Shown: positions 13,895 to 56,343 of the stretch, piece by piece
How positions within the stretch are numbered: the first letter of the stretch is position 1
Layout of the letters: each line of letters starts with the position of its first letter
Source of the DNA: Sacculina carcini
Lineage: Eukaryota; Arthropoda; Thecostraca; Sacculinidae
NCBI GenBank assembly: GCA_916048095.2
Contig: OU696579.1
Location: 1,985,501 to 2,049,500 of the forward strand
Length of the DNA stretch: 64,000 bases
Direction: 5' to 3'
Translations under genes and position numbers: made by a program
Notes under the pieces: model-generated
Told to the model about the DNA's origin: nothing
Database searches by the model: none
Seen by the model: only the letters and a program-made list of their open reading frames with translations

Positions 13895-13908
13895 GAATCA
13901 GGTGGGAG

Positions 13909-14404: not shown

Positions 14405-14409
14405 AACAC

Positions 14410-27054: not shown

Positions 27055-27277
27055 TTATATTGTGTGAATAACTGTTTGATTTTTTTGATTTTTTTTTATT
27101 TTTTTTATCCATAGTTATTTTCAATTGTTCCTTCATAGTATATCAGTGCTTATATCTTTGTTTATGCGATACTGTTTTGTTAATATCACATTGTATACAT
27201 TATATAACTAGCCGTTCCTCGCGCCTATGATAATTAGAGCGCTATATGAAATACATGTGTTGTTGTTGTTGTTGTTG

Positions 27278-27701
27278 AGATGACAATTTGTATCGATGTT
27301 ATGTTTTGCGATTTGTGCGAGTATGATAGTGTAAATGATACCCTTTGCTGAATGTTATTATTCAATGTTTGTCTGTCTGTCTATATGTGTGTTCATGAGC
27401 GTGAAAGTGACCTTGATGCTGTGAGTGAATGATTCTACGAATGTAACCGGCCGTTTGCAGTCCTGCACTATGTCCATGTGTAATATGACCCTCCCTGGTT
27501 AGTTGCCGGCTCACCAGGACGCTTGTATGTATGTCTGTGTGATGTGTGCTTGTATGTGTGCATATGATATGTCTCTGTTCGCGTATGGGCTGATTCGCGG
27601 TTATATAGATGTGTGTGTGTGTGTGTGTGTGTGTGGAACGTTGATACAGTTGTGCTTTGGCTTTCGTGGTGTTTCTTTGTCTGCTAATCACGCATACCAC
27701 A
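27278..27701 (+). repeat. 5' LTR (and possible flank) of CsRn1-like element A1
   Basis: The 3' boundary is clear: ...CATACCACA followed by ATTGG and the PBS. The left boundary is uncertain (between 27278 and 27472), as the matching 3' LTR is missing in both A1 and A2. It contains a (GT)n run at 27611-27634. Element F has inserted into the paralogue of 27468 in X2. Confidence 0.6.
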
Positions 27702-27703
27702 AT

Positions 27704-27715
27704 TGGTGACCCCGA
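27704..27715 (+). promoter_or_regulatory. Primer-binding site matching tRNA-Trp
   Basis: TGGTGACCCCGA is complementary to the 3' end of eukaryotic tRNA-Trp (...TCGGGGTCACCA). Use of tRNA-Trp is typical of the CsRn1/Kabuki clade of Ty3/gypsy elements. The same site occurs in A2 (56579). Confidence 0.75.
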
Positions 27716-27831
27716 TTTTGGTTTGAGCATTTTCAAAGTCAGTTTTCAGTTGTGATTTCCTCATTCATAATTGTCATCATATATCATTTTTCACTTTCGC
27801 TATTTGGAACTTTTGTGCTCGTAATCACAAT

Positions 27832-28531
27832 ATGTTGGGGAAAGAGGAAGCTTCACTTTCAGCTTGTGATGAGACCGCTGTCGGTCGCGTGTCCATTAAA
27901 CCGCCAGGGTTTATGGAGAACGCCGTCGAGGGCTGGTTTGTCGTCCTGGAGGCGCAATTCAACCTCCAAAACATCGTCTCAGAGGCTACGCGGTTCTACC
28001 ACGTAGTATCTTCTTTGCCGCCTAATGTTGTGAGCCAGCTTCCCCTGAGCTGTCTGAGGTCTCAAAATCTTACGGAAATAAAAAAACGAGGTGACACAGT
28101 TGTTCGAGCGCACCAAACCAGAACGCTTCGACGAGCTAATCTCAACGAAAGTGCTGACTGGTCGCCCATCTGCCTTCATGGCTGAGCTGCAAGCAACAGC
28201 GAGGAAGGTTGGAGTTTCAGGTGAGCTGGTTCGTCATAAGTTCTGTCAGGCTATGCCTGGCACGATCAGACCGGTGCTGGCGTCTCGTACAGATATGCCG
28301 ATATCCGAACTAGCTAAGCTGGCGGACGAGCTTATGCCACTGGCACAACACAATGCATCTTGCTTGACAGTGAACAGCTCAGGCAGTAGTTCCTCTGCTG
28401 CTAGGCCTCGTGTACCACCATCGATACACACTGGTAGCATGACATTGACGCCGTACTACGCCGATCAGCGACCTCAAGTATGTCGGGCCCATCTTTTCTT
28501 TGGCCCACGCGCGAGAACGTGCAAGCCGTAG
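27832..28531 (+). pseudogene. Gag of element A1 (frameshift and nonsense)
   Basis: Paralogue of the intact gag at 56707-57507. An extra A in the A run near 28080-28087 shifts the frame, and the Trp codon of the CHCC zinc motif (C..H...C..PWC in A2) has become a TAG at 28529-28531. The capsid-like sequence (KPPGFMENAVEGWFVVLEAQF, LIS..VLTGRPSAFMAELQATARKVG) matches CsRn1-type gag. Non-functional. Confidence 0.8.
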
Positions 28532-28619
28532 TGCAAGTGGCCAAAGAAATCACCAGGCATAACTATTCAACCGTCGTCTCGGCCCTCTTCGCATGCGGCT
28601 TCACCAGACCGTCAACAAC

Positions 28620-30046
28620 AGTCGGAAAACTATAGGGGCAGGTTCCGATCTGTGCGACACCGAGCCTGCCGCTTCTTCGAGTCGCAGCCAAGGTGGGCAG
28701 CACTTCCATCAATTTCATTGTTGATACTGGTGCTGGTGTATCAATCATACCAAAATCAGCCTCTGGTCTTGTCCCAACACCAACAACTGTCTGTCTTTCA
28801 TCAGCGAGTGGCACTGGAATCCCTGTGTTCGGCAAGGTCAAGGTCGAGTTAGTGTTTTCGGCACTACGACTTGCCTACAGCTGGAGCTTTGTCGTCGCTG
28901 ATGTAACCTAACCGATAATTGGAAATGACTTTTTGTGTCACTATCGCCTGGTAGTCGACTGTGGCTCGCGCTGTTTACGCGACACAGTCACGTCACTGCA
29001 CTCTCCTGCGGAACCGACGTCTGCTATCATACCATGTCTCGTTATCAACGACAACTCGATGGTAGCGGCGCCGGCCCGCTCACTACTAGCTGAATACAGC
29101 TGTTTGATGTGTCCGGTCCACACTTCCGTCTCTCTTCCATCAAGCATCAACGTTCAACACACTGTAGACACAGGAAGTGCTGCACCAGTCCACGCCAGAC
29201 GTCGACGTTTTTCTGCGGAGAAGCAAACTGCCATCAAAAGGGAGATAGACACGCTAATAAAAGATGGTATTGTGCGATTCTCCAGTTCGTGCTGGTCTTC
29301 ACCGGTCCAACTAGTTCCGAAAGCCGATGGTGGTTGGCGACTCACCGGAGATTACCGCTGTTTGAATGCCGTAACAAAACGTGATTGTTACTTCATCCCG
29401 ACTGCTCCACTCGTCTAAGCGGTGCTCTTGTGTTTTCAAAATCTACTGAGAGCGTATCACCAGGTGCCTGTAGCTCCTGATGATATCGCTAAAACCGCTG
29501 TCGACACTCCAGCGGGACATGTTGAATATGTCTTCATGCCCTACGGTTTGCGTAATTCTCCAGCCACATTCCAACGACTGATGGACTCTATCTTCAGAAC
29601 ACTAGAATTCGTATTCGTCTACATTGACGACATTCTGGTGTTCTCTCAAGACGAGAATGAACATCACGACCATCTCAGATGTGTCTTCGATGCCCTCAAG
29701 AAGCGTTCACTGCGACTGAAACTGTCCAAGTGTGTCTTATTTGAGAATGACATCCATTTTCTCGGATACCGCATCAACAGTGAAGGTATCAGGCCGGCGA
29801 CATCGAAGGTGAGCGCTCTCGTCGATCAGCCTGCGCCGTCTTCGTCACACGATCTTCGACGTTTCCTGGGCGCCACCGGATTCTACCGCCGCATGATCCG
29901 ACACTATGCAGAAATCGTCCACCCGATCACTGAGCGTATCCGTGCAGATCCAAATAGCAAATCTCTACAGCTCAACAAAGCCGAGCTATCTGCTGTAGCT
30001 GCATGCAAGGACGCTTTGCAATCTGCCGCTCTGCTACATCATCCGC
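28620..30046 (+). pseudogene. Pol fragment of element A1: protease and RT
   Basis: Protease core FIVDTGAGVSIIP (about 28710), then a TAA at 28909-28911, the linker, and RT with WSSPVQLVPKADGGWRLTGDYR, FMPYGLRNSPATFQRLMD, YIDDILVFSQDE (about 29620) and LRRFLGATGFYRRMIRHY. A stop at 29416-29418 and a deletion near 29440 are further lesions; the two stops are shared with A2 and so predate the segmental duplication. The sequence breaks off in the RT-RNase H linker at about 30046, where it is fused to gag of element E and the viral array. Confidence 0.85.
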
Positions 30047-30157
30047 TACAGCAGCTACATCGCTGGGATTTCCTCTGACGAGACCCGCTTCAAGATGATT
30101 GTGGCAAATCTTCCCATCACAGTGGCAGCTCAAGTGAAGGATGTCATTCGCACATCA
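30047..30157 (+). pseudogene. Gag N-terminal fragment of element E joined to A1 pol
   Basis: After 11 bases of junction sequence, 30058-30157 is identical to the stretch at 39259-39358, the early part of E's gag (SSDETRFKMIVANL...). It replaces the continuation of A1 pol and runs in frame into the viral part of unit U1. The left junction (30047) lies inside the RT-RNase H linker of A1, so the array has disrupted A1. Confidence 0.85.
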
Positions 30158-33100
30158 GCGTATCTCACAACAGGCTTCATGGCCATCACCAAATTCGCAG
30201 GAATGGGACTTGAACTCAACTCGTTCGATGCGATTGACTATTCTCTTGGATCGGTGAACCAGTGCCGCGAAATCATTGGTGGTTTTCCGTCTGGTCATGA
30301 GAACAAGCGCATCACTTGCGACCTTCCGGTTCAAGTGGCCTCTCAAGACCAGCTTGACGAGTTCCTTGCGTTTAGACCAGACGGCAAGCTTTCAATGAGT
30401 GAGCAAGATGTCGTCACTTGGCGTCAATTCTCACCGCTGGTTCCGGTCGTTGATGATGGATACGATTTCGTCGTCGGTAACAACGAAGTTGACGACCAAG
30501 CACAAGCTGAACAGAATAATGCACAGCTGGTGTTGTGGATTAAACAGATGGCCGCTCGGTACCCGCAAGTCGTCACAGTGTTGTCGCCGTTGGTAACATC
30601 AGGATTGATTGTCGCAGGACCGGTTGCACTGGTATTCGACAGGATGCGAGCACTCATTGGCGAAACGAACACGGCGGTTGTCGTGATTGCGGCCGTCGGT
30701 TTTTCCATTAACCCAGCGAGTGCCATTGGCGTGGGATTCGCGTCAGTTGGTCTGTACATTGCAAATAACATGTTTTGCGGTCCGTCCTTCTCACTCCGCG
30801 GCGAGCTGATCAAACCAGCGCCGTTGCTTCTGGCTGGATCAGTGGCCATCGGCACCGTCGCCAAAATGTATGCCCAAGGGGGCATAAGACTTGAAACTGG
30901 TCACCTGTCTTCTGGTGTTGGCAACACCCATGGTGCCAGTATTGTTTGTTTTGTTAAATCTTTTTATCGTGTTTCTGTGTTAATAATGAAGAGCATCAGA
31001 GACGGTCATTCTGCTCAACTGAGCACCATCCTCGGTCACGTCGGTGATTTGCTGATCAAAGCAGGTTGTCTGAATCCGTACGAGATCATTCTCGGTTGTG
31101 CTGCAACGGCGGGCCTCGCTGTTATCACAACAATCGCGAAAAAGAACCGCGAGATATACAGACACCTGTATGGCATGCTTGGTCGACATATCGACATGCT
31201 CCGAGACAACGATGGTGACGAGGAAGAGCAGATTATCCAGATCTGTCTCTCTATTGCTAGTATCGTTATTAACCCTGCATCTTCTTTTTCGATTGGTATT
31301 TTATATTTCTCTCGATTTTTAGTTGATTTCTTGATCACGGGCGACACTCGATTCGTGAACAAGAAGAATTTTGTTGAAGCTGCTCTTGACGGCGCTGGTA
31401 TGAACATCATCGTTGCATGTGGGATGGTCATCTGCGAGGTCACGCAGCGGTTGGCAACAGCTGAGTTGAGGCCAGCCCGTGAACAAAATAGTGCAATAGT
31501 AGCTGTGTCCGTTTGCAGTTTTATCACAGGCGCTGGCGCTTTTGTGTATGACTGTTATAGGAAATGGAACACAGAAATGAATGCGATCAATTGCATTTCT
31601 TCTGTCGCCAAAAATTTTTTACGTAATCTTGTTTCTGGATTTGTGTATGTTTTTAGAAAAGTTGTTTGTTTTTTTAAAAGACTGTTTGGCTCCGAGAACG
31701 AGATTGAACTGGATGAGATACCTGACAGCATGATCGATGGATCGCCTCCGGTCAATGATGATCGCTGGTTGTGGCATGTCTTCGGAGAGCTCGCGGAAGG
31801 CAGTGACGACATCAGCCGGACCATGCGTGAAAGCTGTTTGAGTGAGTCGCGACACCAGTTCAAGTTGGCTAATTGGGCGGTTAGCCATGTTGAAAAGTTG
31901 CGAAAGTGTTTTAGATTAGTTTTTTGTGTTAAAAATGTAAAACAGTTGTCGTTTGTTGCTCTCCAAGAGATGGTAAGCAAAATGACAGGCATAGTCTGCT
32001 CAGATTACGAACAGCAAGGTGTGCATGGGCAAACCAACGCTGGGTGTGTGGTCCATTCAGGCGCCTGTTTTGATGACTGTTTATTTGTTATTGTTCGTTT
32101 TCAATATAATGACATGGATGTGTTGCTCATGATTCGTATCCGTTGCGGTACGCTGGATTGTGAGTATTTTTCTAGTAACAGTGGTGACTCCCGGCTTGCG
32201 GACACTTTCGAGAGTGCCATGTCCCCTGACGCAACTGCGCAAACGGCTACTTCCGAAGTACGCCCTATGGCTACATTCCGCCTGCCACCATTTTCAGCCG
32301 AGGAACCAGAGATGTGGCTCATTCAGGTTGAGTGCGCATTCGACATCGCTGTGATTTCCTCTGACGAGACCCGCTTCAAGATGATTGTGGCAAATCTTCC
32401 CATCACAGTGGCAGCTCAAGTGAAGGATGTCATTCGCACATCAGCGTATATCACAACAGGCTTCATGGCCATCACCAAATTCGCAGGAATGGGACTTGAA
32501 CTCAACTCGTTCGATGCGATTGACTATTCTCTTGGATCGGTGAACCAGTGCCGCGAAATCATTGGTGGTTTTCCGTCTGGTCATGAGAACAAGCGCATCA
32601 CTTGCGACCTTCCGGTTCAAGTGGCCACTCAAGACCAGCTTGACGAGTTCCTTGCGTTTAGACCAGACGGCAAGCTTTCAATGAGTGAGCAAGATGTCGT
32701 CACTTGGCGTCAATTCTCACCGCTGGTTCCGGTCGTTGATGATGGATACGATTTCGTCGTCGGTAACAATGAAGTTGACGACCAAGCACAAGCTGAACAG
32801 AATAATGCACAGCTGGTGTTGTGGATTACACAGATGGCCGCTCGGTACCCGCAAGTCGCCACAGTGTTGTCGCCGTTGGTAACATCAGGATTGATTGTCG
32901 CAGGACCGGTTGCACTGGTATTCGACAGGATGCGAGCACTCATTGGCGAAACGAACACGGCGGTTGTCGTGATTGCGGCCGTCGGTTTTTCCATTAACCC
33001 AGCGAGTGCCATTGGCGTGGGATTCGCGTCAGTTGGTCTGTACATTGCAAAGAACATGTTTTGCGGTCCGTCCTTCTCACTCCGCGGCGAGCTGATCAAA

Positions 33101-33901
33101 CCAGCGCCGTTGCTTCTGGCTGGATCAGTGGCCATCGGCACCGTCGCCAAAATGTATGCCCAAGGGGGCATAAGACTTGAAACTGGTCACCTGTCTTCTG
33201 GTGTTGGCAACACCCATGGTGCCAGTATTGTTTGTTTTGTTAAATCTTTTTATCGTGTTTCTGTGTTAATAATCAAGAGCATCAGAGACGGTCATTCTGC
33301 TCAACTGAGCACCATCCTCGGTCACGTCGGTGATTTGCTGATCAAAGCAGGTTGTCTGAATCCGTACGAGACCATTCTCGGTTGTGCTGCAACGGCGGGC
33401 CTCGCTGTTATCACAACAATCGCGAAAAAGAACCGCGAGATATACAGACACCTGTATGGCATGCTTGGTCGACATATCGACATGCTCCGAGACAACGATG
33501 GTGACGAGGAAGAGCAGATTATCCAGATCTGTCTCTCTATTGCTAGTATCGTTATTAACCCTGCATCTTCTTTTTCGATTGGTATTTTATATTTCTCTCG
33601 ATTTTTAGTTGATTTCTTGATCACGGGCGACACTCGATTCGTGAACAAGAAGAATTTTGTTGAAGCTGCTCTTGACGGCGCTGGTATGAACATCATCGTT
33701 GCATGTGGGATGGTCATCTGCGAGGTCACGCAGCGGTTGGCAACAGCTGAGTTGAGGCCAGCCCGTGAACAAAATAGTGCAATAGTAGCTGTGTCCGTTT
33801 GCAGTTTTATCACAGGCGCTGGCGCTTTTGTGTATGACTGTTATAGGAAATGGAACACAGAAATGTGGCGTCACCTATTTACATTCGTTCCTTGTAAATA
33901 G
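30095..33901 (+). CDS. 1268-codon open frame: gag fragment + virus-like + gag start + virus-like (units U1 and U2)
   Basis: One uninterrupted frame crosses: 30095-30157 gag-E N-terminal fragment; 30158-32120 virus-like sequence; about 32180-32443 retroelement leader, PBS and gag start read through in frame (SAMSPDATAQ...); 32444-33863 virus-like sequence again; then 12 codons of junction. The viral part has at least six hydrophobic segments: about 30585-30650, 30665-30755, 30815-30870, 31065-31130, 31235-31330, 31395-31440 and 31495-31555. They are followed by a basic amphipathic stretch (FLRNLVSGFVYVFRKVV) and a cysteine-containing region. In unit U3 the same sequence follows an NS3-like helicase end, so it would correspond to an NS4/NS5A-like region. 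Whether the frame is expressed is unknown; nothing suggests a host function. Confidence 0.6.
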   Translation: MIVANLPITVAAQVKDVIRTSAYLTTGFMAITKFAGMGLELNSFDAIDYSLGSVNQCREIIGGFPSGHENKRITCDLPVQVASQDQLDEFLAFRPDGKLSMSEQDVVTWRQFSPLVPVVDDGYDFVVGNNEVDDQAQAEQNNAQLVLWIKQMAARYPQVVTVLSPLVTSGLIVAGPVALVFDRMRALIGETNTAVVVIAAVGFSINPASAIGVGFASVGLYIANNMFCGPSFSLRGELIKPAPLLLAGSVAIGTVAKMYAQGGIRLETGHLSSGVGNTHGASIVCFVKSFYRVSVLIMKSIRDGHSAQLSTILGHVGDLLIKAGCLNPYEIILGCAATAGLAVITTIAKKNREIYRHLYGMLGRHIDMLRDNDGDEEEQIIQICLSIASIVINPASSFSIGILYFSRFLVDFLITGDTRFVNKKNFVEAALDGAGMNIIVACGMVICEVTQRLATAELRPAREQNSAIVAVSVCSFITGAGAFVYDCYRKWNTEMNAINCISSVAKNFLRNLVSGFVYVFRKVVCFFKRLFGSENEIELDEIPDSMIDGSPPVNDDRWLWHVFGELAEGSDDISRTMRESCLSESRHQFKLANWAVSHVEKLRKCFRLVFCVKNVKQLSFVALQEMVSKMTGIVCSDYEQQGVHGQTNAGCVVHSGACFDDCLFVIVRFQYNDMDVLLMIRIRCGTLDCEYFSSNSGDSRLADTFESAMSPDATAQTATSEVRPMATFRLPPFSAEEPEMWLIQVECAFDIAVISSDETRFKMIVANLPITVAAQVKDVIRTSAYITTGFMAITKFAGMGLELNSFDAIDYSLGSVNQCREIIGGFPSGHENKRITCDLPVQVATQDQLDEFLAFRPDGKLSMSEQDVVTWRQFSPLVPVVDDGYDFVVGNNEVDDQAQAEQNNAQLVLWITQMAARYPQVATVLSPLVTSGLIVAGPVALVFDRMRALIGETNTAVVVIAAVGFSINPASAIGVGFASVGLYIAKNMFCGPSFSLRGELIKPAPLLLAGSVAIGTVAKMYAQGGIRLETGHLSSGVGNTHGASIVCFVKSFYRVSVLIIKSIRDGHSAQLSTILGHVGDLLIKAGCLNPYETILGCAATAGLAVITTIAKKNREIYRHLYGMLGRHIDMLRDNDGDEEEQIIQICLSIASIVINPASSFSIGILYFSRFLVDFLITGDTRFVNKKNFVEAALDGAGMNIIVACGMVICEVTQRLATAELRPAREQNSAIVAVSVCSFITGAGAFVYDCYRKWNTEMWRHLFTFVPCK
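30158..32443 (+). repeat. Tandem unit U1 (2286 bp): virus-like segment + leader + gag start
   Basis: Starts GCGTATCTCACAACAGG directly after gag ...CGCACATCA and ends at the next ...CACATCA. Differs from U2 by a handful of substitutions (for example GCCTCTCAAG here, GCCACTCAAG in all others). Frame fully open. Confidence 0.95.
32444..33863 (+). repeat. Tandem unit U2, truncated at 1420 bp
   Basis: Same as the first 1420 bp of U1 with few substitutions (TATATCACAAC, GATTACACAG, GAGACCATT). It stops at GAAATG, equivalent to U1 position 31579, where an LTR-like hairpin segment begins. Confidence 0.95.
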
Positions 33902-33910
33902 GTGACGCCA
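33864..33910. repeat. Junction hairpin resembling the start of LTR-E
   Basis: 33866-33882 (TGGCGTCACCTATTTAC) and 33894-33910 are perfect 17-bp inverted arms with an 11-nt loop. 33864-33900 also resembles the start of E's 3' LTR at 43275: TGTGGCGTCACC against TGTAGGCACC, then an identical ATTCGTTCCTTGTAAATA (33883-33900 and 43285-43302). This suggests that a short LTR start precedes the viral segment. Confidence 0.8.
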
Positions 33911-35610
33911 GACGGCAGCGTATCGTTGATCGAGGAATCCATCAACGAAAGCAGTATGAAGCAGAGGAAAGGTAGAGTCGGCCGCACAGGGTGCGAAGGA
34001 CACTACCACTACAACGAGAGGAGACAGGTTGTGCCAGACGATAAAAACCCCAGAGCCGACTTGTCGCTCATCTACCGTGTGATCGCGTTCCACTACGTTC
34101 ACGATTACCCGTACTTCAATGTTGCGGACAAGTACGAAGTCGAACACAAGGACATCTTGGAGGCGTGGAAGAGAATCAACATCCCACTGCCGACTGCTGC
34201 GCGCATAATAGCCTACACAAAGATGAACCTCTACACGGTTGGCATGTGCGCAATGGACGGCGGAGACGGACACAGATACTTCACCAAGAAGATGGTCCAG
34301 CAATTGTTTCTGACGTCGATCAACAAAGACGTTAAAAAAGCTGATGTATTTGAGGTGTTAAAAGGTAGAGGAACCAACCCAATTTGGGAGAAAGACATTG
34401 GCATCCCGGAGAACATTGCGATCGTCAACGCAATGGAAACGGAAGCCAACAGTTACCTCGGACTGACAGTTGCAACACTCGGCACAACCGCTATCGCGGC
34501 GGCCTTGAGTCAACTGGTGACCTTTTTCAACTCGAATAGCTGTGCAGAACACATATGGCAGCTAGACGACCACAATTTTGATCCGCTGCTACGCTCTTGT
34601 TACACCACATTTGTGATGGACTACAAATACGCTGAAATGAGTCGTTCAGACGACGGCTTGCCTGATTGTCGTCTAACAAACTTCACGCCACTTCTAAGCG
34701 TCCTGCACAACACAAAAATCCGAATTTGTGATGTGTGGGTGCAGCCAGTGATTGGCGTGTTGACAGTTGACACAATCAGGCTGTGTGAGGTCGCGTATCT
34801 CACAACAGGCTTCATGGCCATCACCAAATTCGCAGGAATGGGACTTGAACTCAACTCGTTCGATGCGATTGACTATTCTCTTGGATCGGTGAACCAGTGC
34901 CGCGAAATCATTGGTGGTTTTCCGTCTGGTCATGAGAACAAGCGCATCACTTGCGACCTTCCGGTTCAAGTGGCCACTCAAGACCAGCTTGACGAGTTCC
35001 TTGCGTTTAGACCAGACGGCAAGCTTTCAATGAGTGAGCAAGATGTCGTCACTTGGCGTCAATTCTCACCGCTGGTTCCGGTCGTTGATGATGGATACGA
35101 TTTCGTCGTCGGTAACAATGAAGTTGACGACCAAGCACAAGCTGAACAGAATAATGCACAGCTGGTGTTGTGGATTAAACAGATGGCCGCTCGGTACCCG
35201 CAAGTCGCCACAGTGTTGTCGCCGTTGGTAACATCAGGATTGATTGTCGCAGGACCGGTTGCACTGGTATTCGACAGGATGCGAGCACTCATTGGCGAAA
35301 CGAACACGGCGGTTGTCGTGATTGCGGCCGTCGGTTTTTCCATTAACCCAGCGAGTGCCATTGGCGTGGGATTCGCGTCAGTTGGTCTGTACATTGCAAA
35401 GAACATGTTTTGCGGTCCGTCCTTCTCACTCCGCGGCGAGCTGATCAAACCAGCGCCGTTGCTTCTGGCTGGATCAGTGGCCATCGGCACCGTCGCCAAA
35501 ATGTATGCCCAATGGGGCATAAGACTTGAAACTGGTCACCTGTCTTCTGGTGTTGGCAACACCCATGGTGCCAGTATTGTTTGTTTTGTTAAATCTTTTT
35601 ATCGTGTTTC
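33902..35610 (+). pseudogene. Endogenous virus-like segment: NS3-type helicase end and membrane region (longest copy)
   Basis: The frame opens after the stop at 33899. At 33962-33985 it reads QRKGRVGR, helicase motif VI of superfamily 2 RNA helicases as in flavivirus-like NS3, followed by an aromatic HYHY and a run resembling the C-terminal helicase domain. 33911-34792 is unique to this copy and leads without a break into the sequence that starts units U1, U2 and U4 (GCGTATCTC at 34793), so this is the native viral order: helicase end, then multi-span membrane protein. No RdRp, protease or structural part is present. A 2-base loss at 35605-35615 (shared with U4) ends the frame. Family call rests on one motif plus order; a DEAH-type cellular helicase is less likely given the following membrane segments. 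Confidence 0.55.
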
Positions 35611-37075
35611 TGTTATTAATGAAGAGCATCAGAGACGGTCATTCTGCTCAACTGAGCACCATCCTCGGTCACGTCGGTGATTTGCTGATCAAAGCAGGTT
35701 GTCTGAATCCGTACGAGATCATTCTCGGTTGTGCTGCAACGGCGGGCCTCGCTGTTATCACAACAATCGCGAAAAAGAACCGCGAGATATACAGACACCT
35801 GTATGGCATGCTTGGTCGACATATCGACATGCTCCGAGACAACGATGGTGACGAGGAAGAGCAGATTATCCAGATCTGTCTCTCTATTGCTAGTATCGTT
35901 ATCAACCCTGCATCTTCTTTTTCGATTGGTATTTTATATTTCTCTCGATTTTAGTTGATTTCTTGATCACGGGCGACACTCGATTCGTGAACAAGAAGAA
36001 TTTTGTTGAAGCTGCTCTTGACGGCGCTGGTATGAACATCATCGTTGCATGTGGGATGGTCATCTGCGAGGTCACGCAGCGGTTGGCAACAGCTGAGTTG
36101 AGGCCAGCCCGTGAACAAAATAGTGCAATAGTAGCTGTGTCCGTTTGCAGTTTTATCACAGGCGCTGGCGCTTTTGTGTATGACTGTTATAGGAAATGGA
36201 ACACAGAAATGAATGCGATCAATTGCATTTCTTCTGTCGCCAAAATTTTTTTACGTAATCTTGTTTCTGGATTTGTGTATGTTTTTAGAAAAGTTGTTTG
36301 TTTTTTTAAAAGACTGTTTGGCTCCGAGAACGAGATTGAACTGGATGAGATACCTGACAGCATGATCGATGGATCGCCTCCGGTCAATGATGATCGCTGG
36401 TTGTGGCATGTCTTCGGAGAGCTCACGGAAGGCAGTGACGACATCAGCCGGACCATGCGTGAAAGCTGTTTGAGTGAGTCGCGACACCAGTTCAAGTTGG
36501 CTAATTGGGCGGTTAGCCATGTTGAAAAGTTGCGAAAGTGTTTTAGATTAGTTTTTTGTGTTAAAAATGTAAAACAGTTGTCGTTTGTTGCTCTCCAAGA
36601 GATGGTAAGCAAAATGACAGGCATAGTCTGCTCAGATTACGAACAGCAAGGTGTGCATGGGCAAACCAACGCTGGGTGTGTGGTCCATTCAGGCGCCTGT
36701 TTTGATGACTGTTTATTTGTTATTGTTCGTTTTCAATATAATGACATGGATGTGTTGCTCATGATTCGTATCCGTTGCGGTACGCTGGATTGTGAGTATT
36801 TTTCTAGTAACAGTGGTGACTCCCGGCTTGCGGACACTTTCGAGAGTGCCATGTCCCCTGACGCAACTGCGCAAACGGCTACTTCCGAAGTACGCCCTAT
36901 GGCTACATTCCGCCTGCCACCATTTTCAGCCGAGGAACCAGAGATGTGGCTCATTCAGGTTGAGTGCGCATTCGACATCGCTGGGATTTCCTCTGACGAG
37001 ACCCGCTTCAAGATGATTGTGGCAAATCTTCCCATCACAGTGGCAGCTCAAGTGAAGGATGTCATTCGCACATCA
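34793..37075 (+). repeat. Tandem unit U3 (2283 bp)
   Basis: Same organisation as U1 but 3 bp shorter: two bases lost in TCTGTTATTAATG (about 35610) and one T lost in CGATTTTAG (about 35950). These shift the frame, so the viral part is read in three pieces (to 35680, 35526-35954 and 35963 onward). It contains its own leader/PBS/gag start (36728-37075). Confidence 0.95.
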
Positions 37076-38245
37076 GCGTATCTCACAACAGGCTTCATGG
37101 CCATCACCAAATTCGCAGGAATGGGACTTGAACACAACTCGTTCGATGCGATTGACTATTCTCTTGGATCGGTGAACCAGTGCCGCGAAATCATTGGTGG
37201 TTTTCCGTCTGGTCATGAGAACAAGCGCATCACTTGCGACCTTCCGGTTCAAGTGGCCACTCAAGACCAGCTTGACGAGTTCCTTGCGTTTAGACCAGAC
37301 GGCAAGCTTTCAATGAGTGAGCAAGATGTCGTCACTTGGCGTCAATTCTCACCGCTGGTTCCGGTCGTTGATGATGGATACGATTTCGTCGTCGGTAACA
37401 ATGAAGTTGACGACCAAGCACAAGCTGAACAGAATAATGCACAGCTGGTGTTGTGGATTAAACAGATGGCCGCTCGGTACCCGCAAGTCGCCACAGTGTT
37501 GTCGCCGTTGGTAACATCAGGATTGATTGTCGCAGGACCGGTTGCACTGGTATTCGACAGGATGCGAGCACTCATTGGCGAAACGAACACGGCGGTTGTC
37601 GTGATTGCGGCCGTCGGTTTTTCCATTAACCCAGCGAGTGCCATTGGCGTGGGATTCGCGTCAGTTGGTCTGTACATTGCAAAGAACATGTTTTGCGGTC
37701 CGTCCTTCTCACTCCGCGGCGAGCTGATCAAACCAGCGCCGTTGCTTCTGGCTGGATCAGTGGCCATCGGCACCGTCGCCAAAATGTATGCCCAATGGGG
37801 CATAAGACTTGAAACTGGTCACCTGTCTTCTGGTGTTGGCAACACCCATGGTGCCAGTATTGTTTGTTTTGTTAAATCTTTTTATCGTGTTTCTGTTATT
37901 AATGAAGAGCATCAGAGACGGTCATTCTGCTCAACTGAGCACCATCCTCGGTCACGTCGGTGATTTGCTGATCAAAGCAGGTTGTCTGAATCCGTACGAG
38001 ATCATTCTCGGTTGTGCTGCAACGGCGGGCCTCGCTGTTATCACAACAATCGCGAAAAAGAACCGCGAGATATACAGACACCTGTATGGCATGCTTGGTC
38101 GACATATCGACATGCTCCGAGACAACGATGGTGACGAGGAAGAGCAGATTATCCAGATCTGTCTCTCTATTGCTAGTATCGTTATCAACCCTGCATCTTC
38201 TTTTTCGATTGGTATTTTATATTTCTCTCGATTTTAGTTGATTTC

Positions 38246-39075
38246 TTGATCACGGGCGACACTCGATTCGTGAACAAGAAGAATTTTGTTGAAGCTGCTC
38301 TTGACGGCGCTGGTATGAACATCATCGTTGCATGTGGGATGGTCATCTGCGAGGTCACGCAGCGGTTGGCAACAGCTGAGTTGAGGCCAGCCCGTGAACA
38401 AAATAGTGCAATAGTAGCTGTGTCCGTTTGCAGTTTTATCACAGGCGCTGGCGCTTTTGTGTATGACTGTTATAGGAAATGGAACACAGAAATGAATGCG
38501 ATCAATTGCATTTCTTCTGTCGCCAACATTTTTTTACGTAATCTTGTTTCTGGATTTGTGTATGTTTTTAGAAAAGTTGTTTGTTTTTTTAAAAGACTGT
38601 TTGGCTCCGAGAACGAGATTGAACTGGATGAGATACCTGACAGCATGATCGATGGATCGCCTCCGGTCAATGATGATCGCTGGTTGTGGCATGTCTTCGG
38701 AGAGCTCGCGGAAGGCAGTGACGACATCAGCCGGACCATGCGTGAAAGCTGTTTGAGTGAGTCGCGACACCAGTTCAAGTTGGCTAATTGGGCGGTTAGC
38801 CATGTTGAAAAGTTGCGAAAGTGTTTTAGATTAGTTTTTTGTGTTAAAAATGTAAAACAGTTGTCGTTTGTTGCTCTCCAAGAGATGGTAAGCAAAATGA
38901 CAGGCATAGTCTGCTCAGATTACGAACAGCAAGGTGTGCATGGGCAAACCAACGCTGGGTGTGTGGTCCATTCAGGCGCCTGTTTTGATGACTGTTTATT
39001 TGTTATTGTTCGTTTTCAATATAATGACATGGATGTGTTGCTCATGATTCGTATCCGTTGCGGTACGCTGGATTG
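38246..39075 (+). pseudogene. Virus-like C-terminal region in U4 (amphipathic and Cys-rich part)
   Basis: After the last frameshift the frame reads hydrophobic segments, an amphipathic basic stretch, an acidic linker (ENEIELDEIPDSMIDGS), and a part with several cysteines (CVVHSGACFDDC) ending at RCGTLDCEYF. It runs in frame into the gag of E. The amphipathic helix followed by a Cys-containing domain recalls NS5A of pestivirus/hepacivirus-like genomes, but this is only an analogy. Present in all units except U2. Confidence 0.4.
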
Positions 39076-39096
39076 TGAGTATTTTTCTAGTAACAG

Positions 39097-39109
39097 TGGT
39101 GACTCCCGG
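39097..39109 (+). promoter_or_regulatory. Primer-binding-site-like sequence of element E
   Basis: TGGTGACTCCCGG follows ...TTTCTAGTAACA (an LTR-type CA end at 39095) and precedes the gag ATG by 25 bases. It shares TGGTGAC with the tRNA-Trp-type sites of A and F, then deviates. The same site is present in U1 (32182) and U3 (36814). Confidence 0.5.
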
Positions 39110-39133
39110 CTTGCGGACACTTTCGAGAGTGCC

Positions 39134-40007
39134 ATGTCCCCTGACGCAACTGCGCAAACGGCTACTTCCGAAGTACGCCCTATGGCTACATTCCGCCTGC
39201 CACCATTTTCAGCCGAGGAACCAGAGATGTGGCTCATTCAGGTTGAGTGCGCATTCGACATCGCTGGGATTTCCTCTGACGAGACCCGCTTCAAGATGAT
39301 TGTGGCAAATCTTCCCATCACAGTGGCAGCTCAAGTGAAGGATGTCATTCGCACATCAAGATCCTTCGCTGCGTTGAGTACCGCCCTGCAGTCTCGTCTG
39401 GCACAATCGCGTACGTCTCGCCTGGAAGCTCTGCTTTCACGACAACAGCTGGGCGACCAACGACCATCGACGCTACTGCGCTCCATGCGCAACGAGCTGG
39501 CAGCGGCAGGCGACACGCCAGAAGACACCGGCTTGCTGCGCACGCTGTTTCTACAGCGATTACCCCAAGGGACACGAGCAGCACTCTCCCTTCTGCCAAC
39601 ATCTGCTCACCTCGACGAGCTGGCCAACGCCGCCGATCGCTACCTGGAGGCTACACAAGCAGCCCAAGCAGTGGCAGCTATTTCTCCTACGGCACCATCA
39701 TCCAACGACAACATGGCTGTCCTGCTCGCCAAAATTGAACAACTCGAGCTTTCACACAAACGCATTAAATCGGAAATGGCAGCCCGCCAAAAAGGCGACA
39801 AGGCCAAATTACGAGCGTTTCCCGGCAAGGCACAGGAGCAACTCACGAGACAGAATTCGGCGCCGTTCCCCATCACCGGATGCTCGCTCACGAGACAGCT
39901 CACCGGCACGCCGTAGCATGAACCAACCACGTCTGTGTTTTTATCATGCCCGGTTCGGCTCATCAGCGCGTCGCTGCACGCCTCCTTGCTCGTGGCATTT
40001 AAACTAA
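39134..40007 (+). pseudogene. Gag of CsRn1-like element E (one frameshift)
   Basis: From ATG 39134 (MSPDATAQ; MATFRLPPF at 39182 is an alternative) the frame encodes capsid-like sequence (FRLPPFSAEEPEMWLIQVE, LLSRQQLGDQRPSTLLRSMRNEL, LFLQRLPQGTRAAL, LDELANAADRY). A one-base change at about 39760-39800 is needed to enter the frame ending at 40007, which has an Arg/Ser-rich linker and the CHCC zinc motif [18 protein letters not shown] typical of CsRn1-clade gag. The first 225 bp are the part repeated in the viral units. Its upstream frame is open into the viral sequence. Confidence 0.8.
39998..40004 (+). promoter_or_regulatory. -1 ribosomal frameshift heptamer of element E
   Basis: T TTA AAC immediately before the gag stop TAA (40005-40007). 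A -1 slip on TTTAAAC puts ribosomes in the frame of pol (FKLTSHQH...), exactly where pol opens. Element F has the same heptamer in the same place (51669). Confidence 0.85.
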
Positions 40008-43000
40008 CAAGCCACCAACACATCGCGCAGTGCACTGGTGGCTCACGTACAAGCGCACCTCTTCTCTTCATCAAAGACGAGACATCCGGCCGTCGGTTCC
40101 TGATTGATACAGGCGCACAAGTCAGTGTAGTTCCTAGAAACTTTGTACCAACACGCACCAAGCTGCAAACACCAAGACACGACCAACAACTTCAAGCTGC
40201 TAACGGCTCGAGAATTTCCGTCTTCGGGATGTACAAAGCCAGAATCGTCTTCAATTCACTAACTTTCGTATGGTGCGTACTCGTGGCCGACGTCAGCATG
40301 CCCATACTTGGCACTGACTTTCTCGCAGCTAATCAACTAGTCGTTGACGTCAGCAAGAGGCAGCTGCTGCATCAGGGGGAAATCTGTGCTAACACTTCAG
40401 CATCACGCATCGCATCAATTGGCATACGGTTTGTCAATGACAGCCTTTCCGACCCGTACGAGCACCTAGTTGCATCGTTTCCCGAGATAACACAAGAACA
40501 AACAACGGGTGCAGTCAAACACAGTGTGACTCATCACATCGTGACCAAGGGGCCACCGATTCACATTCGTCCTCGGCGTTTAGCCCCCGATAGAGCCAAC
40601 ATCGCCAGGCAAGAATTTGAGAAAATGCTGCGCTTGGGTATCATTCAACCGTCCAAGAGTGCTTGGTCATCGCCTCTCCACATGGTACCCAAGAAATTGC
40701 CCGGCCAATGGAGACCGTGTGGCGACTACCGGGCACTCAACGCACAAACGCTTCCGGACCGATACCCACTACCTTACCTGCGAGACTTTTCGGCAAAACT
40801 CAGTGGCTGCAACGTGTTCTCCACAGTGGACCTGGTTCGCGCATACCACCAGATCCCCGTTGAACCAGCAGACGTCGCAAAGACAGCCATCGCCACGCCG
40901 TTTGGTCTGTACGAGATGGTGCGAATGCCATTCGGCCTGCGCAACGCCGGTTCAACGTTCCAGCGTTTCATCGACGAAGTTCTGCGCGGTGTTGATGGCT
41001 GCTTCGCATATCTCGATGACATTTTGGTGGCATCAACAAACAAAGACGAACATCTAGGACACCTCCGCGCCTTGTTTCAGAGATTGCAGTCCTACGGCGT
41101 AGTGATCAACAAAGACAAGTGTGTATTTGGTCGCGACACGGTCTCTTTCCTCGGACATCGTGTCACACCCGGCGGAATTTTCCCACTCGGCGACAAGGTG
41201 CGTGCAATCAGGGAATTCCCACAGCCGACCAGTCAGTCTCAGCTTCGCCGGTTTTTGGGTATGGTGGCGTATTATCACCGTTTTATACCCAACGCAGCTG
41301 CCATACTACAACCCCTGCACGCTCTTCTGACACACCGCGCCAAACGGTCCAAAGCTCCGGTAGCATGGACACAACAGAGCCTCAACAGCTTCAATGCAGC
41401 CAAAACAGCTCTAGCCGACCGTAGTATGCTTGCACATCAAATCCCCGGTGCTCCATTGAGTATCCTGGTCGACGCGTCGGACACTGGTGTTGGCGGAGTA
41501 CTGCAGCAGCACACCAATGGTGAGTGGCAGCCTCTCAGCTACTTTTCCAAGACGCTGACGTCTACTGAACGGCGATACAGCACATTCGGCAGAGAGCTGC
41601 TCGGAGTGTACATGGCCATTCGCCACTTCCGCTACACGATCGAAGGGCGTGACGTGATCGTGTTCACCGATCACCGCCCTCTCGTGCATGCCCTGCCTTC
41701 AGTGTCAGAGAAATACTCGCCTCGCGAGTTGCGGCATTTGGATTTTATAAGCCAGTTTGTGTCGGAGATCCGGCACATACCCGGCAACAAAAACACAGTG
41801 GCAGATGCACTCTCCAGAACAACAGCTGTACTGACTGTTCCGTCGTGCCCAGTCGACGACTACGTCTCCCTAGCTGCGGCTCAACGGGAAGACGCTTCAT
41901 TGGGAACGCTTCGCAACGCGACGTCATCGCTGAAGCTACGCGATGTCATGTTCGGCGAAGCAAAAGTTTTGTGCGACGAGTCCACCGGTCGACCTCGCCC
42001 AGTGCTTCCAACAGCATTACGCCGGCCGTACACTTCTTCTCTGCACAATCTTTCACACCCAGGCATCGATGCCACTGTGAAGCTTGTCTCGTCACGCTTC
42101 GTGTGGCCGAACATGAACCGCGACGTGCGCAAGTGGACTCGAACATGCCTGCAGTGTCAACGAGCGAAAGTTACCCGTCACACGAAAAGCGCGGTACAAC
42201 CATTTCAGCCACCTGGAGAACGCTTCAGTCACGTGCACGTGGACATTGTCGGACCGCTGCCGCCGTCACAAGGTCAGTCATACCTCCTCACATGTGTGGA
42301 CAGATTTTCGCGCTGGCCGGAAGCCATTCCTTTGCCAGACATTCGCGCAGTGACAGTTGCACGCGCGTTTCTCCACCAGTGGGTCTCACGCTTTGGCGTG
42401 CCGACAACCATCACAACAGATCGCGGGGCACAATTCGAATCGTCTCTGTGGTCCGAACTCACTCGACTACTTGGCTGTCAACGCATACGCACCACCAGTT
42501 ATCACCCAAGCAGCAACGGCATGGCTGAACGCTTCCATCGGCAGCTCAAATCAAGTTTGCGCGCTGCCGAAACATCTTCATGGATGGACGTTTTGCCAAT
42601 GGCATTACTGGGTATACGGTCGACGCACAAAACTGATGTCGGCGCCTGCTCAGCCGAACTGGTCTACGGAGCGTCCCTGCGACTTCCTGGCGAGTTGATC
42701 AGCGACTCAACGCAGACAGTCAGTGATCCTGCTTCATTCGCTTCATCGCTGCGCAATCACATGCGCAAACTCCGGCCACGACTTCCACGAGCAGTCAACC
42801 AGCCCTCGTTTGTTCCGACAGCACTCAAGACCGCAACGCACGTGTTCGTCCGTAGAGACAAGCACAGATACCCGCTCGACTGTCCGTACGACGGGCCGTT
42901 TCCCGTCATTCATCGTACAGACAAACTCGTCACGATTAAGACAAACAGCGAGCGCGCGGTCGTCTCCATCGATCGCTGCAAACCGGCCTTCGTCGAAGAC

Positions 43001-43279
43001 GTGCAGCCAAACTCGCCAATTTCAACACCTGCGACGCCAGATGATCGAGATGACGGTGACAACACAGAACTGTTCGTGCCTCCAACAACCGTGCCACGGA
43101 CACCGACATCTGCTGCAGACCCTACCAGGTCAGGTCATGAACACACAGCTACACACACCAACACATACACGCATCCACAGTCCATTTTGCGTACTAGGAG
43201 CGGTCGTGCCGTGCGCCCACCTTCGCGTTATCGCAGTGTCTCGTTTCTCCTCGACACTTCTAGGGGGAGGGCCCTGTAG
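39998..43279 (+). CDS. Pol polyprotein of CsRn1-like element E, intact
   Basis: About 1093 codons, reached by -1 frameshifting from gag. In order: protease [13 protein letters not shown] (about 40100); RT with [40 protein letters not shown] and YLDDILVAS (about 41008); RNase [12 protein letters not shown] and FTDHRPL; integrase zinc domain (HNLSHPG ... TCLQCQR) and catalytic residues in [19 protein letters not shown] and [12 protein letters not shown]. The C terminus ends in a Thr/Pro-rich tail and [13 protein letters not shown]. No stops or shifts are seen, so this could encode an active enzyme set. A purine tract (GGGGGAGGG, 43263-43271) overlaps its end before the 3' LTR. Confidence 0.92.
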
Positions 43280-44206
43280 GCACCATTCGTTCCTTGTAAA
43301 TACTAATGTGTTATATTCTTGTATTTAAGCGCACACTTTTATTACATACATACATACTACGTTATTCGTTACACTGTCGTATAAATTTGATGAAAAATGT
43401 TGTAGCACGTTATTCCAAACTATTGTCTGCGCGAAACATGTGTAGTGTATTGAACCATGTCCTAGGGAACCACACATAATTAAAACATAATCTTGTTTTG
43501 TGTTTAAATGTTTTTATGTATGCATAAGTGACGTTTGTATAGTTTTTGAATTGTGTACGTCCATGTTCGCTTGTTCATACGCATCAACGTGCATGTGTAT
43601 TTGCTATTCATGTGTGTTGCCTATTTAGATATACTGTAATGTATTGTGTATGTGTATGTACGTGTTGCACCCCGGTCCTCTATGCATTTAGTCGCGTGCT
43701 TTGCGCAAAAGCACAACCGTTTTGACCACTATCAGCTCGAGTTTATGTGGTTGTCGGACACACTTCCGGCGCGCTCCGACAACGGCATGAATCATCGGGC
43801 TATATAAGTGGGCGCACAATGCTGAGTGAACTCATTGTTCCTGCGCACTCGCCACTCTCTCCAGCAACACTGCAAGCACATCTCCAGCTGCTCCTCTGCA
43901 ATACTCGCCTTGTGTTTAATGTTATTTCGCCGTGCTGTTTTGCAAGTCTACGCTGTACTTGCTAATACACTGGAAAAACCCATCTGCTTTTTCTGCATTG
44001 TAACGTATCCCTCGCATCTCTTCACGCCTTTTTAAAGGCGCACTCTTTTAGCGATTAAACCTCATATGCGCCTTTATAAAGGCCAATTTTGTCAACGAAT
44101 TCCGCAATTTTACGCCTTGCTAAATGCGAATAATTGGTGAACTCTTGCGCAATCGTGGTGGCCCTTGTGCAACACTCCGTGCAGCTGGTTTTTCACGCCG
44201 GTTGCC
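43275..44206 (+). repeat. 3' LTR of element E, probably truncated
   Basis: Starts TGTAGGCACC straight after the polypurine tract. It contains a promoter-like TATATAAG at 43801-43807 and GC/AT-mixed downstream sequence. The 3' end expected from the sequence before the PBS (TTTTTCTAGTAACA) is not found, so the LTR seems cut where segment X2 begins (about 44150-44206). No target duplication can be defined. No gene here. Confidence 0.6.
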
Positions 44207-44611
44207 ATGGCTACCAACAACAGCACTGCAGAAACTGAGCAGCAAATTACAACTACTCGAATGTTACAGAACGTAGTTCTACAAGAAGAAGACAAGCTGG
44301 AAAGCAAGAGAACAACTGCGGACAAATTGCTGGTTAGGACAGAAATGAAATTTTGTGCTGAAGCTTGGCTAACAGAATCTGCAGTACAGCAGAGAAGAAT
44401 GTCCCATAAGCAAGATACAAGATCAACTCTATCTCGGACACGTGTATGGAAGAGTACTGGCGACAATCTGAGAAGAAAACCAACGCCTGGATACTGGAAT
44501 TGTCACTGTCTCTCACTCACTGGCATCATCGTTGGTGGCCATCACACTGTCCATCCCGCCAGCCTCTCTAGACCACTCTCAAACTCTCTCTCTCTCTCAA
44601 TCAGCAATTAA
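44207..44611 (+). CDS. Small unidentified ORF (X2 copy)
   Basis: From ATG 44207 (MATNNSTAETEQQ) 134 codons. Polar N-terminal half, basic middle, Ser/Leu-rich C terminus that is a translation of a CT-rich repeat. No domain recognised. The X1 copy keeps the frame but lacks the start. Conservation of the frame is no proof, as the copies are only a few percent diverged. It could be the 5' end of a lost element. Confidence 0.25.
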   Translation: MATNNSTAETEQQITTTRMLQNVVLQEEDKLESKRTTADKLLVRTEMKFCAEAWLTESAVQQRRMSHKQDTRSTLSRTRVWKSTGDNLRRKPTPGYWNCHCLSLTGIIVGGHHTVHPASLSRPLSNSLSLSISN

Positions 44612-48094: not shown

Positions 48095-48679
48095 AATGCG
48101 TTTCTTGTATTCTTTGTTGCTTTTATGTTGTTACCCCTGATTGTTCTTGTTTTTCTCATGTTGTGCACGGTATGTCTTTCCTTGTGCGTGTTGTTTATAC
48201 CTTTGTTTTTTCCGCAAGCTCTTGTCTTTTATTATATTGTTCGCGCCTTTGCATTTTATCGTGCGCTTTATTAAATATACGAGTTGTTTGTTTGTTTGTG
48301 TACTCATCACTATTTCACTGTGAGTGTCACCGCCTAGTCAACTGTATGCATGACTAACAAGAGTTTCAAGAAAAAAATGACTGCAGCTCTCTAGATTTTA
48401 ATATTAAATATAATTATAATATCGAGAAGCGATCAACTGTTCAATAATTCAAACTTGTTTGATTTCATATGTTGTGTAGTTTGTTCTATTTTGTTGTTTG
48501 GTTTTTATTTGCTTAAGGGGCTTAATGAAAATACTCACAGCTCTTAGTAAATCCCTGCCAAATTTATATATACGTCTTAAATTTGCTGTGGTTTTACTGA
48601 TATTGATCATTGTTTGGTGTTCATGTTGAAATTGAATTTGGTCAAAATACACAAAAAATGTATCTCTGTGGGGACTGAG
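48095..48679 (+). repeat. LINE 3' UTR, X2 copy, with the empty site of the CR1 insertion
   Basis: Counterpart of 22294-22877. At 48666-48690 it reads straight through GGGGACTGAG-ATGACAATTTG, the sequence that in X1 is interrupted by the 4.4-kb LINE. Confidence 0.85.
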
Positions 48680-48868
48680 ATGACAATTTGTATCGATGTT
48701 ATGTTTTGCGATTTGTGCGAGTATGATAGTGTAAATGATACCCTTTGCTGAATGTTATTATTCAATGTTTGTCTGTCTGTCTATATGTGTGTTCATGAGC
48801 GTGAAAGTGACCTTGATGCTGTGAGTGAATGATTCTACGAATGTAACCGGCCGTTTGCAGTCCTGCAC

Positions 48869-50724: not shown

Positions 50725-50726
50725 AA

Positions 50727-50736
50727 TGGTGACCCC
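50727..50736 (+). promoter_or_regulatory. Primer-binding site of F (tRNA-Trp type)
   Basis: TGGTGACCCC two bases after the LTR end matches the 3' end of tRNA-Trp; the match then stops (AGTTGG). Same type as A1, A2 and G. Confidence 0.65.
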
Positions 50737-50841
50737 AGTTGGTATTTGAATCGTTTTCTGTTGTTTTTGTGTGGTGCTTTTCACCTGGTGGTGTGTCTGT
50801 GTGGTTTTGCTTGCCTCTTACATATTAGTGCGTGCAGTATC

Positions 50842-54822: not shown

Positions 54823-54839
54823 TCTGAGGAGGGGACTCC

Positions 54840-56339: not shown

Positions 56340-56343
56340 GCAC

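What the first reader, a model, noticed from the sequence alone, without database searches (positions are those of the whole stretch)
33902..39075. Endogenous virus-like NS3-to-membrane region fused to a Ty3/gypsy gag
Seen: QRKGRVGR at 33962-33985, followed by several hundred codons with at least six hydrophobic spans, an amphipathic basic stretch and a Cys-containing part, running in frame into the gag start of element E. Known: QRxGRxGR is helicase motif VI, and in flavivirus-like polyproteins the NS3 helicase is followed by multi-span NS4 proteins. Inference: a piece of a flavi-like (possibly pesti-like or large-genome) RNA virus was copied into DNA and now sits in a CsRn1-like retrotransposon. 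This may be an undescribed virus lineage.
Basis: partly seen in the sequence, partly recalled or inferred. Interest (0 to 1): 0.92.

Follow-up and report, generated by a model that had tools for sequence, protein, structure and literature searches.

The report
Fossil pestivirus-like fragment fused to retrotransposon
A piece of an apparently undescribed pestivirus-like RNA virus was copied into this eukaryotic genome and fused to a Ty3-type retrotransposon, most likely by template jumping at the retrotransposon's primer-binding site, and was then duplicated in tandem.

Summary
Window 33902-36808 is a non-retroviral endogenous viral element. Alone it has no profile or structure match. Relatives on contig C1 of the same 264-Mb genome extend it upstream into an NS3 with a pestivirus-type S31 protease (Pfam 1e-14) and an SF2 helicase; the best solved-structure match is a flavivirid NS3 (2e-9). 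Window and C1 copies align over 297 codons without gaps: 86.5-87.5% amino-acid identity, yet 202-204 third positions differ. That is divergence as replicating viruses. C11, C1 and C3 are mutually distinct, as are C11, C35 and C19, so at least three viruses entered.

The mechanism is readable. The virus joins Ty3 element E at the 5'LTR/primer-binding-site boundary, within a shared 7-mer. Its other end touches nt 10-28 of the same LTR, beside a snap-back inverted repeat. At C21 a related viral piece joins another Ty3 pol through a 12-nt identity. No relative was found in six collection searches. RdRp could not be tested.

The parts
27276..30053 (+). Truncated copy of another Ty3-type element (F; RT-like by eye, no profile run on it); cut off where the chimeric array starts
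   Evidence: 27276-27469 = 48676-48869 (100%) and 27465-30053 = 56340-58932 (97.5%); junction letters
30057..30157 (+). E gag fragment (101 bp), first piece of the array
   Evidence: 100% to 39258-39358
30158..32443 (+). Unit 1: viral membrane-protein segment (to 32176) plus E PBS and gag N-terminus (joint at 32177); one open frame
   Evidence: DUF7041 9.7e-19 in the 29999-33901 frame, read as gag by position and recollection
32444..33865 (+). Unit 2, partial (viral part only), broken off at 33865
   Evidence: 99.3% to 34793-36211
33866..33910 (.). 18-bp inverted repeat (33866-33883 / 33893-33910) enclosing 19 nt of E's LTR (33882-33900 = LTR nt 10-28): snap-back end of an aberrant cDNA (inferred)
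33902..34792 (+). Viral NS3 C-terminal end (motif VI at 33962-33985) into NS4-like region; single copy in the window
   Evidence: 86.5-87.5% aa identical, ungapped, to three C1 copies; C1 frames carry protease and helicase upstream
34793..36808 (+). Viral membrane/basic/Cys-containing segment (NS4B-NS5A-like by position only), unit 3, with two frame breaks
   Evidence: 75.4% aa to C3, 80.8% to C35, 82.2% to C19 over the stretches compared; C21 72% DNA identity
36809..37075 (+). Virus/E joint (shared AACAGTG 36809-36815), E primer-binding site, gag start (ATG 36851) and gag N-terminus; end of unit 3
   Evidence: 12 of 12 E copies inspected (of 32 rows that match only the E part) have the LTR end and then the same PBS
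37076..39091 (+). Viral segment of unit 4
   Evidence: 99.87% to unit 3 over 2283 bp; 3 substitutions
39092..43274 (+). Rest of Ty3-type element E: PBS, gag (frame to 39916), pol (protease, RT, RNase H, integrase)
   Evidence: Pfam RVT_1 6.5e-33, RT_RNaseH_2 3.4e-27, rve 3.2e-14, Integrase_H2C2 9.2e-18, RVP 2.9e-4
43275..44219 (+). 3' LTR of E, 945 bp, TG...CA; no 5' LTR of E found in the window
   Evidence: no LTR partner upstream in the window self-comparison

Best explanation
The region is a cDNA copy of part of a pestivirus-like (Pestiviridae / large-genome 'LGF' clade) plus-strand RNA virus, made by the reverse transcriptase of Ty3-type element E (or a sister) and fused to E. Shown: viral ancestry, sense orientation relative to E, joint positions, tandem copies. 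Inferred steps: minus-strand synthesis on E RNA reached the primer-binding site, jumped to viral RNA at a shared AACAGTG, copied it from the NS4/NS5A-like region back into NS3, jumped to the start of E's LTR, and snapped back on itself to give the inverted repeat at 33866-33910. The product, lacking a 5' LTR, was joined to chromosomal DNA, probably by end joining. A 2283-bp stretch spanning the virus-gag joint was then duplicated in tandem. It is most likely an inert fossil for protein production; a piRNA source is possible but untested. Several related viruses entered this genome, at least one more of them fused to a Ty3 element (C21).
For: Homology: window piece matches 5 other places in the genome at 70-73% DNA identity. 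C1 relatives carry Peptidase_S31 (1e-14), DEAD and Helicase_C in the same open frame in L008. PDB ranking: 5mz4 2e-9 and 5wx1 2.7e-9 (recalled as classical swine fever virus NS3), rows named or recalled as HCV NS3 4.6e-5 to 0.0012, an RNA helicase of unshown origin 0.00072, HrpB 0.0016, DHX36 0.04, flavivirin NS3 0.21. Viral mode of divergence: codon-position differences 45/15/202 of 297 (window-L002), pN 0.09 with pS saturated; likewise in six ungapped, stop-free comparisons, C11-C3 (two stretches), C11-C35, C11-C19, C35-C19 and C1-C3: pS 0.83-0.97, pN 0.05-0.18 (which replaces where two stretches ran into E). Mechanism: 3 of 3 virus/E joints in the window are identical and lie at the LTR/PBS boundary; 12 of 12 E copies inspected have the LTR there instead; the two viral relatives read there have GACAGTG. 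Only 102 of 200,000 random virus-E joins share 7 nt or more and 0 of 200,000 share 12 or more. 19-nt exact LTR piece plus inverted repeat at the other end. C21: virus sense joined to Ty3 pol sense through 12 identical nt (virus matches query 1-200, seven Ty3 copies start at 188 at 99-100%), with a mononegavirus L fragment, also sense, directly upstream.
Against: The window piece on its own matches no profile and no solved structure (best 0.15); its identity rests on its relatives. Three protein searches and three viral-contig scans found no relative, so no tree could be made. The protease piece alone has no PDB match. The single-sequence fold is useless (pLDDT 28.7). RdRp not tested: the tool did not complete. 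The three window joints are copies of one event, so the PBS coincidence counts once. The second joint (33901/33902) shows no clear microhomology; the viral letters upstream of it in this lineage are not held. On C21 the joint is inside pol, not at a PBS. Element E supplying the RT is an inference. No reads were available to check the tandem array for assembly error.
Confidence: 0.9

Rival explanations
1. Endogenous pestivirus-like element, but joined to E at DNA level: viral cDNA made by another reverse transcriptase and put next to E by end joining, ectopic recombination or gene conversion.
For: Later DNA-level rearrangement clearly happened: 2283-bp tandem units and a truncated F element at the left edge. 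PMC5497376 (passages read) names ectopic recombination as an alternative for mosquito viral integrations.
Against: Both ends of the viral piece touch E sequence of the same LTR (nt 10-28 upstream, LTR end/PBS downstream), in sense orientation; 12-nt identity at another Ty3 joint on C21. Microhomology as such is also seen in some end joining (recalled), so it does not exclude this rival.
Confidence: 0.12
2. A captured gene: the retrotransposon carries the viral segment as a working extra domain and spreads it (as helicase-bearing LINEs of insects do).
For: Virus and gag share phase; one frame is open across 29999-33901. Viral helicase domains in insect LINEs are in print (PMC4686597, PMC5563155; listing and start of abstract seen).
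Against: Of 40 scored matches (58 candidates) to the viral unit plus joint, 32 show only the E part (from query position 2017 or 2018) and, of the 8 others, only those in this array run from virus into E. No 5' LTR of E in the window, and units 3 and 4 have frame breaks.
Confidence: 0.03
3. A host gene or cellular DEAH helicase that resembles NS3.
For: QRxGRxGR also occurs in cellular DEAH helicases (rows at E 0.0016-0.76).
Against: S31 protease in frame with the helicase, saturated synonymous divergence between copies in one genome, viral polyprotein order, fragments ending abruptly next to different transposons.
Confidence: 0.01
4. Assembly artefact or contamination.
For: Near-identical tandem units are hard to assemble; no reads could be checked.
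Against: Units differ by substitutions and indels; relatives on five other contigs, C1, C3, C21, C35 and C19; an RNA virus would not enter a DNA assembly by itself.
Confidence: 0.03

Closest known systems
Pestiviridae / large-genome flaviviruses (LGF; e.g. Maximus pesti-like virus, Bole tick virus 4, spider pesti-like viruses)
   Same: S31-type NS3 protease followed by SF2 helicase and a hydrophobic region; a downstream piece at C35 has methyltransferase-like motifs (recalled), and PMC11287256 (passages read) says LGFs carry a methyltransferase in NS5.
   Different: Here only DNA fragments in a genome; no relative found in the searches made; RdRp and glycoprotein class not established.
Pestivirus-derived elements in shrew genomes (PMC9550988, passages read)
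   Same: Endogenous pieces of pestivirus-like polyprotein.
   Different: Mammalian, old (10.8 My in that paper); here several distinct viral lineages, near-identical local copies and a readable retrotransposon joint.
Viral integrations beside Ty3/gypsy in Aedes (PMC5497376, passages read)
   Same: Virus fragments tied to Ty3/gypsy elements; template switching named there as the likely source of viral DNA.
   Different: Different viruses; here the joint sits at the LTR/PBS boundary with LTR sequence on the other side.
Comparative flavivirid fossil survey (Bamford et al. 2022, doi 10.1093/ve/veac085; not held, seen only as cited)
   Same: According to PMC9550988 it reports flavivirid fossils in various invertebrates and fish.
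   Different: I could not read it; it may already hold related elements.
CsRn1-type Ty3/gypsy retrotransposons
   Same: Gag-pol with PR, RT, RNase H, integrase, TG...CA LTR, PBS right after the LTR.

Membership tests
Non-retroviral endogenous viral element | Viral sequence covalently inside host chromosomal DNA | tested here: met
   Joins to transposons on C11 and C21; copies on C1, C3, C35, C19 in the assembly; no reads checked
Non-retroviral endogenous viral element | Copies diverged as viruses (purifying selection) rather than as neutral DNA | tested here: met
Pestiviridae-like virus | NS3 serine protease of S31 type | tested here: met
   Peptidase_S31 1e-14, 54.9 bits against cut-off 27, on L008:5199-5750; not in the window piece itself; phmmer of the same piece against PDB found nothing
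Pestiviridae-like virus | SF2 NS3 helicase closer to pesti/hepaci NS3 than to cellular helicases | tested here: met
   by E-value ranking only; no tree
Pestiviridae-like virus | RdRp (NS5/NS5B) grouping with pestiviruses | not tested
   The genome search with PF00998 did not complete in 14 tries
Pestiviridae-like virus | Erns (RNase T2) / E1E2 or class II E glycoprotein | tested here: inconclusive
   Pfam none on L010:519-1418 and L010:1355-2899; PDB none useful for L010:1355-2899
Large-genome flavivirus | Methyltransferase in NS5 | tested here: inconclusive
   Motif-like DLTPGRGG and YDGIVVDTVDG in L052:7159-8139 (recalled motifs); no Pfam and no useful PDB match
Large-genome flavivirus | Genome well above 13 kb | not testable with these tools
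Ty3/gypsy LTR retrotransposon (E) | PR-RT-RNaseH-IN order and paired LTRs | tested here: met
   Domains; 12 of 12 other copies inspected have an LTR match before the PBS; this copy has the 3' LTR only
CsRn1 clade | Clade position by RT tree; tRNA-Trp primer site | not tested
   PBS starts TGGTGACTCCC; clade and tRNA-Trp use are recalled

The most novel reading that the evidence does not exclude
An unsampled genus-level lineage of pestivirus-like viruses has infected the germ line of this host repeatedly, at least three distinct viruses, and Ty3 reverse transcriptase captured its RNA by template jumps, in this window right at the primer-binding site. The genome thereby records a standing route from cytoplasmic RNA viruses into retrotransposon cDNA, with what looks like serial jumps (Ty3 pol, pesti-like virus, mononegavirus L) in one product at C21.
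Probability: 0.45. Interest if true: 0.75.

Novelty: new member of a known kind. Interest (0 to 1): 0.62.

Why it matters
Flavivirid fossils fix host range and minimum age of virus clades, and pesti-like ones were scarce in what I could find (search listings; Bamford et al. 2022 not readable). Here fragments of several related viruses lie in one genome, many with long open frames, which shows repeated germ-line entry. The joint at the LTR/PBS boundary with LTR sequence on the other side is unusually direct evidence for how a retrotransposon polymerase turns an RNA virus into chromosomal DNA, a step more often assumed than read from sequence.

Tried and rejected
Pfam and PDB searches with the window piece alone: nothing. 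Viral-contig scans with the helicase piece, the NS3-end alignment A2 and the downstream alignment A3: 9, 38 and 319 pattern matches, none confirmed. Protein searches with L009 residues 313-830, L008 helicase and L052: none at 1e-3; these only see proteins of 0.55-1.75 times the query length, so whole viral polyproteins were out of reach, and the negative is weak. No positive control was run for any of these six searches. Single-sequence fold of 33902-34792: pLDDT 28.7, not used. Host identity: not found; COX1 search did not complete; of three contig ends fetched one read N and the other two gave no canonical telomere. EMP70 intron test not answered. My first Ka/Ks with L005 used the wrong strand and was redone with L011 reversed. 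In one search the C11-C35 and C11-C19 stretches ran past 36808 into E; one search repeats all these comparisons inside viral sequence, ungapped and without stops, and its numbers are the ones given. Captured-domain and host-gene readings rejected as given under rivals.
Full report
What was checked. The frame containing QRKGRVGR (33962-33985) is open from 33902 to 35680. Self-comparison shows that 34793 onward is not unique: a 2283-bp unit occurs at 34793-37075 and 37076-39358 (99.87%), a near copy at 30158-32443, and a partial one at 32444-33865. Only 33902-34792 is single copy in the window. The units consist of a viral segment and the PBS plus gag N-terminus of a Ty3-type element E, whose gag-pol and 3' LTR follow at 39092-44219.

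Is it viral? Alone, the window piece matches no Pfam family and nothing useful in the PDB. The genome search found 6 places including itself, four of them on C1. In L008 and L009 the homologous frame continues upstream through helicase-like motifs (recalled names: TNAVESG, DEVH, GSGKS) into a protease. On L008 Pfam calls the protease Peptidase_S31, the pestivirus NS3 peptidase, at 1e-14, and the helicase DEAD 1.5e-7 and Helicase_C 2.7e-8. Against solved structures the best two are a 'genome polyprotein' and an NS3 (5mz4, 5wx1; I recall them as classical swine fever virus) at 2e-9 and 2.7e-9, then rows named or recalled as HCV NS3 from 4.6e-5 to 0.0012, an RNA helicase of unshown origin at 0.00072, HrpB at 0.0016 and flavivirin NS3 at 0.21. 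Pesti/hepaci NS3 above nearly all cellular and above orthoflavivirus helicases places it in the pesti/LGF neighbourhood, without a tree.

How did the copies diverge? Window and three C1 copies (L002, L003, L004) align without gaps over 297 codons: amino-acid identity 86.5-87.5%, differences at codon positions 1/2/3 of 45-47/15/202-204, pN 0.09-0.10 and pS saturated; the three C1 copies differ from each other at 3-6 nucleotides. Six further comparisons, ungapped and stop-free, gave: C11-C3 83.6% and 75.4% amino-acid identity (two stretches), C11-C35 80.8%, C11-C19 82.2%, C35-C19 71.7%, C1-C3 91.1%; pS 0.83-0.97 and pN 0.05-0.18. Integrated neutral DNA does not diverge like this; replicating virus does. 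C11, C1 and C3 are mutually distinct over one stretch, and C11, C35 and C19 over another, so there were at least three viruses. C35 and C21 are close (96.3% over 679 bp).

What else of the virus is in the genome? On C1 the order is glycoprotein-like Cys-rich region, NS2-like membrane region (both by eye; no Pfam match), protease, helicase, NS4-like region, in a cluster of near-identical copies that alternate with an antisense EMP70 (TM9SF) coding fragment. C35 copies continue downstream of the window's viral end, and one (L052) runs into methyltransferase-like motifs, recalled by me and not confirmed by Pfam or PDB. C19 holds another lineage and, by eye, a basic stretch before a glycoprotein start resembling that of C1; as DNA it matched only itself. 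I list these as pieces and did not join them.

The joints. In 12 of 12 E copies inspected (of 32 rows that match only the E part), the LTR (945 bp, TG...CA) ends CCAACA and is followed by GTGGTGACTCCCGG. In the window the same PBS follows viral sequence at 32177, 36809 and 39092, with identical letters on both sides; virus and element share AACAGTG, and the two viral relatives read there have GACAGTG. The upstream end of the viral piece (33902) is preceded by 19 nt identical to LTR nt 10-28, and this by an inverted copy of the joint; the inverted repeat is 18 bp. So the virus sits between the start of the LTR and the PBS and stands in place of the rest of the 5' LTR. This is what one expects if minus-strand synthesis on E RNA switched at the PBS to viral plus-strand RNA and later back to LTR sequence, ending in a snap-back. 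Of 200,000 random joins between this viral piece and E's coding part, 102 share 7 nt or more and none 12 or more.

A second case on C21 supports this in part: a virus piece in sense orientation joins a sense Ty3 pol (inside pol, not at a PBS). The viral part matches query positions 1-200 (three C35 copies, 97-98%), and seven Ty3 copies start at position 188 (99-100%); the shared GAGAGAAAGCTG is 12 nt (the letters of those Ty3 copies were not printed). Directly upstream, also sense, is a mononegavirus L fragment (Mononeg_RNA_pol 1.5e-20, Mononeg_mRNAcap 1.7e-31). PMC5497376 (passages) reports Ty3/gypsy association of viral integrations in Aedes and cites template switching.

After integration. 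Unit 1 is open; units 3 and 4 share 3 indel columns against it and differ from it by 10 and 11 substitutions, and from each other by 3. The tandem joint at 37075/37076 has at most about one shared base. The left edge joins truncated element F to E gag near 30052. The missing 5' LTR and the frame breaks argue against a working chimeric element; among 40 scored matches (58 candidates) only those in this array run from virus into E.

Novelty. No relative in three viral-contig scans or three protein searches, with the length limit noted and no positive control. Pestivirus-like elements are in print for shrews (PMC9550988, passages). A wide survey of flavivirid fossils (Bamford et al. 2022) was not held, so I do not claim that invertebrate pesti-like elements are new; the host is unknown to me in any case. 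The kind of object is known; the lineage and the clarity of the joint are what seems new.

Noticed in passing
G000:C21 about 5,077,000-5,081,000 (L017): Mononegavirus L fragment, pesti-like fragment and Ty3 pol, all sense, joined one after another.
   Followed up: partly
L052:8699-9475 (C35): Fragment with a viral (alphavirus-type by recollection) methyltransferase match, Vmethyltransf 4.4e-6, 26.4 bits, just below the cut-off of 27: a possible further RNA-virus fossil near the pesti-like one.
   Followed up: no
G000:C1 about 3,042,000-3,132,200: Cluster of near-identical pesti-like copies alternating with an antisense EMP70 (TM9SF) fragment that is open over 406 codons; whether it is a processed copy could not be tested.
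   Followed up: partly
window 16265-18441 and 61851-64000: Kinesin-motor coding sequence (Pfam Kinesin 8.8e-110 on 16535-17908) repeated at 95% in transposon-rich DNA.
   Followed up: no
window 9694-14405: LTR-like element (497-bp repeats 9694-10190 and 13909-14405, 98.8%) with gag-pol-like frames by eye.
   Followed up: no
window 48868-56339: Ty3-like element (by eye) with frames 50701-54822 whose flanking repeats hold arrays of about 31-bp units; it appears inserted in an F-type element (48676-48869 and 56340 onward).
   Followed up: no
L018:1-819 (C35): Envelope-like frame next to the pesti-like fragment; only a weak Pfam match (Herpes_UL4 0.002, below cut-off); retroelement env by my recollection only.
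   Followed up: no
L055 (G000:C11:1-300): Contig end made of short repeats of the type ACTTAGGTAAC / ACTTAGGGCAC, possibly subtelomeric.
   Followed up: no
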